64,000 nucleotides of DNA from Polyangiaceae bacterium (GTDB taxonomy: Bacteria; Myxococcota_A; Polyangia; Polyangiales; Polyangiaceae). Position numbers and translations under genes: made by a program. Positions 33,223-57,593 of the stretch are shown here, one piece after another (the first letter of the stretch is position 1; each line of letters begins with the position of its first letter). The stretch covers positions 1 through 64,000 of the forward strand of contig JAHBVX010000014.1 in the NCBI GenBank assembly GCA_019637295.1, given 5' to 3'. Under the pieces are notes generated by a model. It was not told where the DNA came from. It saw only the letters and a list, made by a program, of their open reading frames with translations, and made no database searches.

Positions 33223-33313
<91 letters not shown>

Positions 33314-33479
33314 AGGGGTGGCGGAGGCCGAAAGCTACCCGTAGCGCCGAGCCCGTCAAGAGGTATCCGCTTCGAGGGCCGCGCCAGCCAGCCCCGGCCT
33401 CAGCCGGACCGACAAACCCGGGGGTCTGATGGAGCGGCGGCGGCGCTCGTTCGCGTGCCTGTGGGTCCGCGCGCGCGCG

Positions 33480-33720
33480 TGCGATGGCGTGGGCCTGGCG
33501 CGTTCGCGGAGGCGTGTCGCGTGGGCGTGGGCGTGTCGCGAGGGCGTGGGCGTGTCGCGAGGGCGTGGGCGTGTCGCGTGTTGCGTGGGCGGGGGCGTGT
33601 CGCGTGGGCGGGGGCGTGTCGCGTGTTGCGTGGGCGGGGGCGGGTTGCGGGGGCGTGGGCGGGTTGCGATTGCGTGTGCGTGGGCGGGGGCGTGTTGCGG
33701 GGGCGTGGGCGAGGGGGGCT
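33480..33720. repeat. GTGGGCG-rich repeat block 1
   Basis: About 240 bp of imperfect tandem units built from GGGCGTG and GTGTCGCG, without start-stop structure that looks coding. Bases 33561-33619 are identical over 59 bp to 34467-34525 in block 2. The strand is very G-rich and could form G-quadruplexes. It begins about 165 bp beyond tRNA-Ser; bases 33314-33480 show nothing recognisable. Confidence 0.8.
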
Positions 33721-33741
33721 CGCTGCGGTCGTCTGACGGGT

Positions 33742-33955
33742 ACCGGCTTGCTCGGCGTCGTTCAGGCCGGGGCGGTGCTCGCCATGCTCGGTTTCGCCTG
33801 TGCGTGACTGCGCGCCGTGCGCGCTTCGCGCGCAGCCTGCGCTGCGGTCGTCTGAGTTTACCGGCTTGCTCGGCGTCGTCCAGGCCGGGGCGGTGCTCGC
33901 CATGCTCGGCTTCGCCTGCGCGTGGCTGCGCGCCGTGCGCGCTTCGCGCGCAGCC
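33742..33955. repeat. Tandem copies 1 and 2 of a 118-bp element
   Basis: The element starts ACCGGCTTGCTCGGCGTCGT at 33742 and again at 33860; each unit holds the shared tract GTCAGGCCGGGGCGGTGCTC (or TCCAGG) and the palindromic CGCGCTTCGCGCG. The two copies differ at about four transitions over 97 bp. A third, shortened copy lies at 34577. All copies follow a GTGGGCG block, so block plus element form one composite repeat that flanks the four-helix gene. Confidence 0.75.
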
Positions 33956-34038
33956 TGGACGGCGCCTGCGCGAGCCGGTGGCGGTGGGGGGACGACCGCC
34001 GCGCAGCGGGCGCGGGCGGCGAACCAGGAGTGTCTACG

Positions 34039-34371
34039 ATGCTACGAATCTATTCGGTGTTGCTCGAGTTGATCCGGGACTTGATGCCGCTGGTGCGGGA
34101 GCTCGAGCGACGGGAGCCGGATCTCGCGCGGCAGTGCCGGCGGGCGCTCGCGAGCGCGCCGCTCAACGTCGCGGAAGGGTCGCAGTCGCGGGGGCGAAAC
34201 CGCGGGGCGCGGTACGCGACGGCGCTCGGATCGCTGCGGGAGGCGCAGGCGTGCTTCGAGGTGGCCGAGGTCATGGGCTACTTGCCCGCGCTGTCGGCGG
34301 AGCGTGTCGCGAGCTTCAATCGCGTGATCGGCACGCTGGTGCGCGTCACCCAAGGGCCGGCGCGGCGCTGA
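34039..34371 (+). CDS. Four-helix-bundle protein (S23 / Avd-like family)
   Basis: 110 residues from ATG 34039. The text MLRIYSVLLELIRDLMPLVRELERREPDLARQCRRALASAPLNVAEGSQSRGRNRGARYATALGSLREAQACFEVAEVMGYL shows four amphipathic helices with the family hallmark LNVAEGSxSxGxNRxxRYxxALGSLRE. Such proteins were named from 23S rRNA intervening sequences and include Avd, the basic nucleic-acid-binding partner of diversity-generating retroelement reverse transcriptases. There is no reverse transcriptase here. The gene is enclosed between two composite repeats, which suggests a mobile or repeat-associated unit. Confidence 0.8.
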   Translation: MLRIYSVLLELIRDLMPLVRELERREPDLARQCRRALASAPLNVAEGSQSRGRNRGARYATALGSLREAQACFEVAEVMGYLPALSAERVASFNRVIGTLVRVTQGPARR

Positions 34372-34384
34372 CGCGGATCGCGCG

Positions 34385-34560
34385 ACGGGGGGGCGTGGGC
34401 GGGTTGCGTTTGCGTGGGCGGGTTGCGTGGGCGTGTTGCGATGGCGTGGGCGTGGCGCGAGGGCGTGGGCGTGGGCGTGTCGCGTGTTGCGTGGGCGGGG
34501 GCGTGTCGCGTGGGCGGGGGCGTGTTGCGTGGGCGTGTGCGTGGGCGGGTTGCGATCGCT
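34385..34560. repeat. GTGGGCG-rich repeat block 2
   Basis: A second array of GTGGGCG, GGGTTGCG and GTGTCGCG words, starting 14 bp after the four-helix gene stop and sharing a 59-bp identical segment with block 1. It has the same orientation, so the two blocks are direct repeats about 906 bp apart. Confidence 0.8.
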
Positions 34561-34576
34561 GCGGGCCTTCGATCGT

Positions 34577-34665
34577 ACCGGCTTGCTCGGCGTCGGTCAG
34601 GCCGGGGCGGTGCTCGCCATGCTCGGCGCTTCGCGCCTGCGCGTGGCTGCGCGCCGTGCGCTGGA
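34577..34665. repeat. Third copy of the ACCGGCTTG element
   Basis: It begins ACCGGCTTGCTCGGCGTCGG and continues with the shared core through GCTCGCCATGCTCGGC, then diverges with small changes and ends near GCGCGCCGTGCGC. It follows block 2, as copies 1 and 2 follow block 1, and it stops just before the K+ channel gene. Confidence 0.7.
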
Positions 34666-34707
34666 CACCACGGGAGCCCGGGGCACATACTCGCGCGCGA
34701 TCGTCGA

Positions 34708-36066
34708 ATGTCTGGCAACGCTCACATCTACGTCGAGCCCAAGCTCCCCGGCTGGTGGGACCGCGTCATCATCGCGCTGACGCTGGCCAGCATCGGGTTG
34801 CTCTTGGTGGACGCTCGCCTCGAAGGCGACCACGCCGCGGGTGCCATCATCAGCTACGTGGATCTGGGCGTGTGCGCGTTGTTCCTCACGGACTTCACCT
34901 GGCGGCTCGCGAAGGCGCAGCATCGCTGGGCGTTCCTTCGCAGGAACTGGATCGATCTGCTCGGCTCCATCCCCCTGATCGAGCCCCTGCGCGCTGCGCG
35001 GATCGTGCGCTTCGCGCGCCTGCTCCGGATCCTGCGCATCGTCGTGCTGGTCCGGCGCGTGTTCGAGCGACGGGGGGTGAAGCTGCCGCCCGCCGTCGGC
35101 TACCTGGTGATCGTGACGGTGTGCATTTGGCTCTTGGCGGGCGCCGGGTTCTACGCCTTCGAAGGGGGCGCGAACGAGAACGTGACGTCCCTCGACGACG
35201 CGCTGTGGTGGAGCATGACCACCCTGTCCACCGTGGGCTACGGTGATCTGTACCCGGCCACGGGCGGCGGGCGCGTCGTGGCGCTCGTGACCATGGTGCT
35301 GGGTATCGGCGTGCTGGGTACGCTCGCCGGAACGCTGGCCACGGCGTTCATGGACGCGCGCGAGCGCCGGCTGCGGGGGCTTGGGAGCTTCGTGATGAAG
35401 GACCACCTGTTGATACTGGGCTACAACGACCACGCCATGGCGTCGGTCGCGGAGTTTCGAGCCGATCCGCGCTTTGCCGACGCCGGGGTCGTGATCGTGG
35501 CGGACCTGGAGCGGACGCCGACGGAGGACGCTTCCGTTCGATTCGTCTGCGGCAGCCCCGCGCTGCGCGCGAGCCTGGACCGTGCGAGCGCGGCTGACGC
35601 GGGCGCGGCGCTCGTCCTGTCACGGGATCCGCGCGACCCGCGCTCGGACCTGGAGACCGCGGTCGTGGTCCACGCGCTGCGCCGCGTGAACCCGAAAGTC
35701 CCCATCGCCGCGGAGCTCGTGGATGCCAAGCACCGCGATGTGGTGAGCGAGGCGGGCGCGGACGCCGCTGTGAGCACCAGTCTGGTAGTATCGGCGCTGC
35801 TCGTGCGCAGCTTGCAGGACATCGGCGCCTTCGACCTGGTGATGGACTTGCTCTCCAATGAGCGCGGCTCGGAGTTCTATCGCGTGCAGGTGCCGGGCGA
35901 GTTCGTCGGCAAGGCGTTCGGGGACTACGCGCACGCCATGGTGGACAAGGCGATCAGCGTCGTCGCGATCGCGCGACAGCGCGAGCTGGAGGTCAACCCC
36001 GATCCAACTCAGACGCTGCGCGACGGCGACGAGGCCTTCGTCATCGCGCGGGATCCCCCCAAGTGA
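34708..36066 (+). CDS. Voltage-sensor-type potassium channel with cytoplasmic RCK (TrkA-N) domain
   Basis: 452 residues from ATG 34708. Transmembrane segments include VIIALTLASIGLLLVDA, VDLGVCALFLTDFTWRLA, a charged S4-like helix (RAARIVRFARLLRILRIVVLVRR), YLVIVTVCIWLLAGAGFYAF and VALVTMVLGIGVLGTLAG. The selectivity filter is TTLSTVGYGDLYP (TVGYGD near residue 174). After the last helix comes an RCK domain: DHLLILGYNDHAMASVAEF, a Rossmann-like start, then AGVVIVADLE and a C-terminal RCK_C (VQVPGEFVGKAFGDY). It conducts K+ across the inner membrane, gated by ligand and perhaps voltage. The G-rich repeats precede it, so its promoter may lie within repeat DNA. Confidence 0.9.
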   Translation: MSGNAHIYVEPKLPGWWDRVIIALTLASIGLLLVDARLEGDHAAGAIISYVDLGVCALFLTDFTWRLAKAQHRWAFLRRNWIDLLGSIPLIEPLRAARIVRFARLLRILRIVVLVRRVFERRGVKLPPAVGYLVIVTVCIWLLAGAGFYAFEGGANENVTSLDDALWWSMTTLSTVGYGDLYPATGGGRVVALVTMVLGIGVLGTLAGTLATAFMDARERRLRGLGSFVMKDHLLILGYNDHAMASVAEFRADPRFADAGVVIVADLERTPTEDASVRFVCGSPALRASLDRASAADAGAALVLSRDPRDPRSDLETAVVVHALRRVNPKVPIAAELVDAKHRDVVSEAGADAAVSTSLVVSALLVRSLQDIGAFDLVMDLLSNERGSEFYRVQVPGEFVGKAFGDYAHAMVDKAISVVAIARQRELEVNPDPTQTLRDGDEAFVIARDPPK

Positions 36067-57346: not shown

Positions 57347-57363
57347 CCCGCACGCGATTGCGC

Positions 57364-57440
57364 GTGCTGCGTGCTGCGTGCTGCGTGCTGCGTGCTGCGT
57401 GCTGCGTGCTGCGTGCTGCGTGCTGCGTGCTGCGTGCTGC
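57364..57440 (-). repeat. Eleven perfect 7-bp tandem repeats, candidate phase-variation tract
   Basis: GTGCTGC repeated 11 times on the plus strand (GCAGCAC on the coding minus strand), with partial units at both ends. The repeat encodes Arg-Ser-Thr-Gln-His-Ala-Ala in every reading frame and contains no stop, so length changes only shift the downstream frame. It lies between a good ATG with Shine-Dalgarno (57453) and the signal-peptide core of the protease. The distance is 107 bp, which becomes a multiple of three with 12 or 9 copies. Confidence 0.9.
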
Positions 57441-57593
57441 GTGCCTTGGACATGATCACCCCTCTGGTGGTAGGTGACGTCAGAATACGCGGGGCGTCGT
57501 GAGGTTCAAGCGCTTCGGCGCCGTCCGACGCAGTTTGGTGGGAGAGTGTCGCACGTCGCTAGGGTGAGAGCGGCGACACGCCGTCGCCCCCGC

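What the first reader, a model, noticed from the sequence alone, without database searches (positions are those of the whole stretch)
33480..34665. Composite repeats in direct orientation enclosing a four-helix (S23/Avd-like) gene
Two GTGGGCG-rich blocks sharing a 59-bp identical stretch, each followed by an ACCGGCTTG element (two tandem copies left, one right), bracket a single 110-residue gene of a nucleic-acid-binding family. The symmetry suggests a unit that moves or duplicates, or a repeat array with a dedicated protein. Position beside tRNA-Ser is typical of insertion hot spots.
Basis: partly seen in the sequence, partly recalled or inferred. Interest (0 to 1): 0.62.

Follow-up and report, generated by a model that had tools for sequence, protein, structure and literature searches.

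The report
Dispersed hairpin-and-S23-gene repeat
A small repeated DNA unit, made of a conserved hairpin, one gene for a four-helix protein of the S23 family and locus-specific hexamer repeats, is scattered through this soil myxobacterium and its relatives and looks like an undescribed selfish mobile element.

Summary
The window holds one copy of a dispersed unit: hexamer array, hairpin (33848-33985), S23/IVP gene (34039-34371), array. Two truncated hairpin copies lie beside it. The genome has six more copies (90-98% protein identity); all six non-window matches of the 106-bp element lie next to an S23 gene. In relatives the same hairpin, with diverged sequence, precedes S23 genes: 76 of 90 examined. 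Its stems covary strongly in two alignments (91 and 103 compensated cells, against 25 and 33 in shuffles). G-U pairs are no commoner than A-C mismatches, so the hairpin is probably read as DNA. Arrays of 6-7 bp units lie upstream of 59 of 86 S23 genes, against 3 of 620 background windows. The unit sequence differs between loci but is often the same on both sides of one locus. Copies are under purifying selection, decayed copies exist, and flanks in related species lack the unit. Best reading: a selfish element whose DNA hairpin is the cis site and S23 the bound protein; the strand-moving enzyme is unknown. It is not an rRNA IVS, DGR, integron or Rfam family. tRNA-Ser next door looks incidental.

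The parts
33481..33716 (+). left GC-rich array, mostly 6-bp steps (GCGTGG/GCGGGG/GTTGCG), G-rich strand = coding strand of the S23 gene
   Evidence: TRF; the repeat finder; orientation
33721..33839 (+). hairpin copy 1 with leader CGCTGCGGTCGTCTGA; truncated, lost on the S23 side just past the hairpin apex
33840..33855 (+). 16-nt leader before the full hairpin, identical to 33721-33736; it recurs in other copies and alone in solo array locus L273
33848..33985 (+). complete hairpin (model R1 match, 50.9 bits)
   Evidence: fold (z -2.7); covariation of the family
34039..34371 (+). S23/IVP four-helix-bundle gene, 110 aa
   Evidence: AlphaFold2 pLDDT 94, four helices; fold matches 2gsc, 2rld, 4dwl; dN/dS 0.08-0.31 among copies
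34372..34390 (+). 3' end of the shared core (CGCGGATCGCGCG..GGGGG), after which copies diverge
   Evidence: alignment of 7 copies
34391..34554 (+). right array, direct orientation, sharing 59 identical bp with the left array
   Evidence: TRF
34565..34671 (+). hairpin copy 3, degenerate and truncated (19.4 bits); leader type CGATCGTACC as in copy L015, so probably a separate event

Best explanation
It is one copy of an undescribed, multi-copy selfish element of the order to which this myxobacterium belongs. SHOWN: the unit is leader, a long conserved hairpin (two covarying helices around near-invariant GTGCTCG and CTGCGC-type strands, variable apex), then one S23 gene and a short 3' tail; hexamer or heptamer arrays usually flank it; it is dispersed, sometimes in tandem or convergent pairs, under protein-level selection, with decayed copies and element-free flanks in relatives. 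INFERRED: the hairpin acts as folded DNA and is the cis-acting site; the S23 protein, which has the fold of the DGR accessory protein Avd, binds it and hands it to a polymerase or recombinase supplied by the host or another element; integration happens in, or seeds, simple-repeat arrays, and slippage or recombination in the arrays makes tandems, deletions and solo arrays. The enzyme that moves the strand is not identified.
For: Copies: 7 S23 genes at 90-100% identity in this genome, 6 of 6 non-window hairpin matches beside them. Hairpin before S23 genes: 76 of 90. In 8 genomes 43 of 57 hairpins are followed by S23 within 300 nt, and G070, one contig of 11.4 Mb, has neither. Covariation: 91 doubly changed cells vs 25.0 shuffled, score 0.502 vs 0.111; second set with no shared rows 103 vs 33.1, 0.608 vs 0.143. 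DNA-like: G-U 6, A-C 7 of 494 cells; 8 and 12 of 475; tRNAs G-U 15 of 173, p 1e-5. Arrays: 70 of 86 vs 26 of 620 windows. Same unit on both sides of a locus: 9-mer similarity 0.37 vs 0.037 between loci. Purifying selection: dN/dS 0.08-0.31. Element-free flanks in relatives. Decayed or truncated copies.
Against: No transposition was observed and no enzyme found. No two-sided empty site: left and right flanks of the G148 loci tried fall on different contigs in relatives, so neither target duplication nor exact ends are known. 34 of 77 PF05635 genes in 8 genomes had no R1 hit. 14 of 57 hairpins lack a detected S23 gene, some apparently never had one. An AAGGAG-like ribosome-binding sequence between hairpin and start codon also suits an mRNA leader. 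Hairpins for both covariation sets were chosen partly by pairing of the upper helix, which inflates its paired fraction; the lower helix was not used for choice and still covaries.
Confidence: 0.55

Rival explanations
1. Autoregulatory RNA leader of a host gene family: the hairpin is the 5' untranslated region bound by S23 to control its own synthesis; copies multiply by recombination between arrays, with no dedicated mobility.
For: Hairpin lies just upstream of the start codon on the coding strand in 76 of 90 genes; long stem folds well; purifying selection on the protein.
Against: G-U wobble is rare and no commoner than A-C, unlike tRNAs. Hairpins also sit without S23, as in L093, L116 and L238. 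Absence from most relatives (46 of 183 genomes with a hit at 1e-15).
Confidence: 0.2
2. Retrotransposition in trans: an RNA complementary to the S23 strand, ending in the hexamer array, is copied by a resident reverse transcriptase by target priming; truncated copies then keep the array side, as LINE copies keep their tail end.
For: Truncated copies tend to keep the array and hairpin-leader side: window copies 1 and 3, L016, L093 and L118, L273. S23 has the fold of Avd, partner of the DGR reverse transcriptase. Two reverse transcriptases above cut-off in the genome.
Against: An opposite truncation exists (L266 keeps only the 3' end). A-C is not clearly commoner than G-U (27 vs 17, p 0.17). The two enzymes look group-II-like, below the curated cut-off, with no DGR. 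Co-occurrence with an enzyme was not tested.
Confidence: 0.12
3. Insertion into pre-existing microsatellites only: the arrays are ordinary target DNA, split by the element, and the element is a simple site-selective transposon.
For: Unit sequence differs between loci but is shared by both sides. 13 of 20 GCGKGG array loci lack S23. Short GCT or AGC tracts at element-free sites in L176 and L163.
Against: Many single units have inverted, not direct, arrays on the two sides. In this genome the G-rich strand is the S23 strand in 7 of 7 loci. Some solo arrays contain element fragments.
Confidence: 0.1

Closest known systems
23S rRNA intervening sequences (IVS) encoding S23p (Coxiella, Leptospira)
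   Same: Single small gene of the same family; called a selfish element; Coxiella IVS has tandem heptamers (GACAGAT) just before the S23p start; a mobility role of the ORF was proposed long ago (PMC4990558: abstract, Discussion and passages read).
   Different: Intergenic, not in rRNA; conserved upstream hairpin with GTGCTCG/CTGCGC; many dispersed copies; protein under purifying selection.
Diversity-generating retroelements (Avd protein; DNA hairpin of the target)
   Same: S23 model matches Avd 4dwl and DGR complex 8ub7 at TM about 0.7. DGR targeting uses a DNA hairpin or cruciform whose stem structure matters while its sequence can vary (PMC3240598, abstract read).
   Different: No DGR reverse transcriptase, template repeat or variable repeat found; hairpin much longer.
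REP/BIME and MITE-like dispersed hairpin repeats (general knowledge)
   Same: Short dispersed palindromic units, some without any gene.
   Different: Carries its own S23 gene; no transposase-type ends or target duplications seen.
Integron cassettes with attC hairpins (general knowledge)
   Same: Folded-DNA hairpin with conserved boxes, stems conserved in structure, variable apex, next to one gene.
   Different: 0 of 51 hairpins have RYYYAAC...GTTRRRY; hairpin is 5' of the gene.

Membership tests
S23/IVP protein family (PF05635) | profile score above curated cut-off | tested here: met
   39.4 bits vs 33.8; TIGR02436 39.8 vs 24
S23/IVP protein family (PF05635) | four-helix bundle fold | tested here: met
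   AlphaFold2 pLDDT 94.1, four helices; best fold matches 2gsc and 2rld
23S rRNA IVS element | location inside a 23S rRNA gene | tested here: not met
   intergenic between tRNA-Ser and a potassium channel gene; no Rfam match at 33300-34800
23S rRNA IVS element | excision by RNase III | not testable with these tools
   needs RNA experiments
Diversity-generating retroelement | DGR reverse transcriptase with template and variable repeats nearby | tested here: not met
   the RT hits in the genome are on other contigs and the two scanned are group-II-like; repeats are arrays and hairpins, not TR/VR
Diversity-generating retroelement | Avd fold of the accessory protein | tested here: met
   4dwl TM 0.64-0.72
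Integron attC site | RYYYAAC and GTTRRRY core boxes (recalled consensus) | tested here: not met
   0 of 51 hairpins
REP with RAYT/Y1 transposase | linked or resident Y1 transposase | not tested
   no search for such a transposase was made
MITE or IS derivative | terminal inverted repeats and target-site duplication | tested here: inconclusive
   arrays hide the ends; no two-sided empty site
Known structured RNA (Rfam 15) | match to a curated family | tested here: not met
   none in window region; in 16 loci only sub-threshold isrG matches on the simple repeats of L042

The most novel reading that the evidence does not exclude
A new class of mobile element: an S23 (Avd-fold) protein and a folded-DNA hairpin form the mobility complex, recruit a host or resident polymerase, and write or expand locus-specific hexamer arrays at both ends on integration. 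The rRNA IVS and DGR Avd would be domesticated or specialised branches of the same system, and S23-less hairpins its non-autonomous followers.
Probability: 0.3. Interest if true: 0.88.

Novelty: new variant of a known kind. Interest (0 to 1): 0.72.

Why it matters
S23 genes are widespread but without known function. The idea that the S23 ORF of rRNA intervening sequences was a mobility component is old and unsettled (PMC4990558, Discussion). Here the same protein family sits alone with a conserved cis hairpin in many copies, so both partners of a possible mobility complex can be named and tested. The locus-specific arrays, alike in unit on both sides but direct or inverted, are a pattern that I know from no described element (recall).

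Tried and rejected
Reading the hairpin only as a structured RNA: weakened by the scarcity of G-U. tRNA-directed island: rejected by orientation. Phage or plasmid cargo: no relative of the S23 protein L028 in plasmids or phages and none for A4 in viral contigs. Defence system: no PADLOC or PHROGs hit for the S23 protein. Arrays as a fixed part of the core: rejected, since dispersed cores in genus g43 align only from about 11 nt before the hairpin to about 38 nt after the stop.

Dead ends: Rfam isrG matches in L042 are simple repeats. Window R1 hits below 20 bits, other than copies 1 and 3, are taken as background of a GC-rich model. Two-sided empty sites were not obtained. The ion-channel flank has no close relative in the genus: 3 of 39 genomes had a match, our own included.

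Selection and dropped rows. One search examined 94 S23 genes. 67 hairpins with pairing score 11 or more and not hand-excluded for a wrong motif pair were kept, 51 after removing near-duplicates; A1 used 26 of these 51 and A6 used the other 25. One search dropped loci with under 350 nt upstream, runs of N or an identical 150-nt upstream. One search counts 38 loci, of which L055 repeats L025 and L072 repeats L049, so 36 are distinct. One search used R1 matches of 27 bits or more typed; two of its 14 misses (L025, L084) have a hairpin by motif. cap the candidates scored per genome, so the counts are lower bounds.

Full report
WHAT IS THERE. The gene product is an S23/IVP protein. Its profile matches the solved Xcc0516 structure at 1e-11, and its model is a confident four-helix bundle, nearest to the S23-family structures 2gsc and 2rld and then to the DGR accessory protein Avd.

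COPIES IN THE GENOME. The 106-bp element matches at 9 places, 3 of them in the window, and all 6 others lie immediately 5' of a near-identical S23 gene. Seven S23 genes are 90-100% identical, one of them cut at codon 82; four more are 33-50% identical. Among the six full copies dN/dS is 0.08-0.31, so the protein is kept by selection. The shared core runs from the leader before the hairpin to about 18 nt after the stop codon.

THE HAIRPIN. In the same order 46 of 183 genomes have S23 genes at E 1e-15 or better, often several per genome. Reading upstream of them showed a hairpin of diverged sequence but one architecture: a lower helix, GTGCTCG against CTGCGC with an internal loop, an upper 14-bp helix, a variable apex, then in many copies an AAGGAG-like sequence before the start codon. 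Twenty-six hairpins aligned by MAFFT give 92.5% paired cells and 91 doubly changed cells against 25.0 (sd 3.9) in shuffles, and slid structures give 12-24. A second set of 25 with no shared row gives 93.3%, and 103 against 33.1. The upper helix was used in choosing sequences, the lower was not; the lower is 91.5% and 96.8% paired and covaries in 4 and 5 of 5 pairs. Model R1 finds a hairpin just upstream of 76 of 90 S23 genes held.

DNA OR RNA. An RNA helix tolerates G-U on its own strand, while a DNA hairpin has no reason to prefer G-T over A-C. In A1 there are 6 G-U and 7 A-C of 494 cells, in the larger model-fitted A2 (79 rows) 17 and 27, in A6 8 and 12 of 475. Eight tRNAs of the same sequences have 15 G-U of 173 pairs (Fisher p 1e-5). 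The yardstick is small, and ARAGORN lists only paired cells. I read this as folding at the DNA level, as with the DGR target hairpin whose stem structure, not sequence, matters (PMC3240598, abstract), but not as proof.

THE ARRAYS. A tandem array lies in the 640 nt examined upstream of 70 of 86 S23 genes against 26 of 620 background windows of this genome; for periods 6, 7, 12 or 14 the counts are 59 of 86 and 3 of 620. The background is from this genome alone, while the 86 loci are from many. The unit differs between loci (GCGTGG, GGGCAGT, CCGCTT, GACGAG and many more), yet left and right arrays of one locus share 9-mers far more than arrays of different loci (0.37 vs 0.037). Where alike, they run direct in this genome and in most convergent S23 pairs, inverted in several single units elsewhere (L042, L068, L077, L084, L091). 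The GCGKGG pattern has 20 loci in the genome; 7 hold an S23 unit, always with the G-rich strand as coding strand, and 13 do not. None of these 13 has a convincing hairpin (best 17.6 bits), but L273 keeps the leader and L266 a sequence like the 3' junction, so at least some solo arrays may be scars. What makes the arrays is unexplained.

ASSOCIATION AND MOBILITY. In eight genomes 43 of 57 hairpins are followed by S23 on the same strand; of the other 14, L113, L137 and L114 precede a decayed gene, L093 is cut just after the hairpin, and others show no S23. G070, one contig of 11.4 Mb, has no hairpin and no PF05635 gene. G083 has five tandem units about 0.64 kb apart. In genus g43, flanks of G148 units were found in sister species without the unit beside them: the L125 right flank in L172, L173, L174, L191 and L185, the L068 left flank in L176 to L180; L176 and L163 show short GCT or AGC tracts there. 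Left and right flanks never lay together, so a clean empty site is missing. In g43 one subfamily carries an ECF sigma factor gene downstream of S23, and both pieces recur together at several places, which looks like cargo.

HOST RANGE. The hairpin occurs in 26 of 377 genomes of the phylum, 24 of them of this order; the one hit inspected in each of the other two (L238, L242) lacks S23. Named records that encode close relatives are Myxococcota, delta-proteobacterium or unnamed bacterium MAGs, several of them Polyangiaceae (22 loci). None was found in plasmids, phages or viral contigs.

WHAT IS KNOWN. A paper search for PF05635, TIGR02436 or 23S_rRNA_IVP returned three papers; further searches on four-helix bundle protein with mobile, repeat, hairpin or myxobacterial terms listed nothing on such a unit (listings only). 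One cas-gene survey notes the family in CRISPR loci (PMC3936711, passages); one DGR paper notes its likeness to Avd (PMC10053308, passages). The Coxiella IVS paper calls the IVS a selfish element, reports heptamer repeats before S23p and recalls the mobility hypothesis (PMC4990558, abstract, Discussion and passages). I found no description of this unit in that library; subscription journals are mostly outside it and bioRxiv is not held.

VERDICT. A dispersed, selected, hairpin-bearing S23 unit is well supported (I put that part at about 0.8). That it is a mobile element working through folded DNA is the best reading (0.55 for the whole statement). The enzyme, the ends and the origin of the arrays are open.

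Noticed in passing
L116 1501-1600: An S23-less hairpin of the same model lies between the N-terminal leucine-zipper part and the catalytic part of an IS66 transposase gene, as if inserted; a tail GGGCGATGGGC..GCCTCCGGCGGGGGCTC follows it, and similar tails recur at L129, L236 and twice in L238.
   Followed up: partly
L134 1501-1602: S23-less hairpin next to an integrase-core (rve) transposase gene in the same genome G164.
   Followed up: partly
L196 600-2500: In G147 an ECF sigma factor gene is enclosed by two convergent S23 genes, like a composite; S23 plus sigma recurs at several places in genus g43.
   Followed up: partly
L021 493-2742: Unusual long reverse transcriptase about 10 kb from the S23 copy on contig C12; group-II-like but far below the curated cut-off.
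   Followed up: partly
window 57362-57444: Heptamer array GCGTGCT, 11.9 copies, not at an S23 gene.
   Followed up: no
window 33223-33313 and C1 copy (L096): Two of seven unit copies lie beside a tRNA gene (tRNA-Ser here, tRNA-Arg at C1).
   Followed up: no
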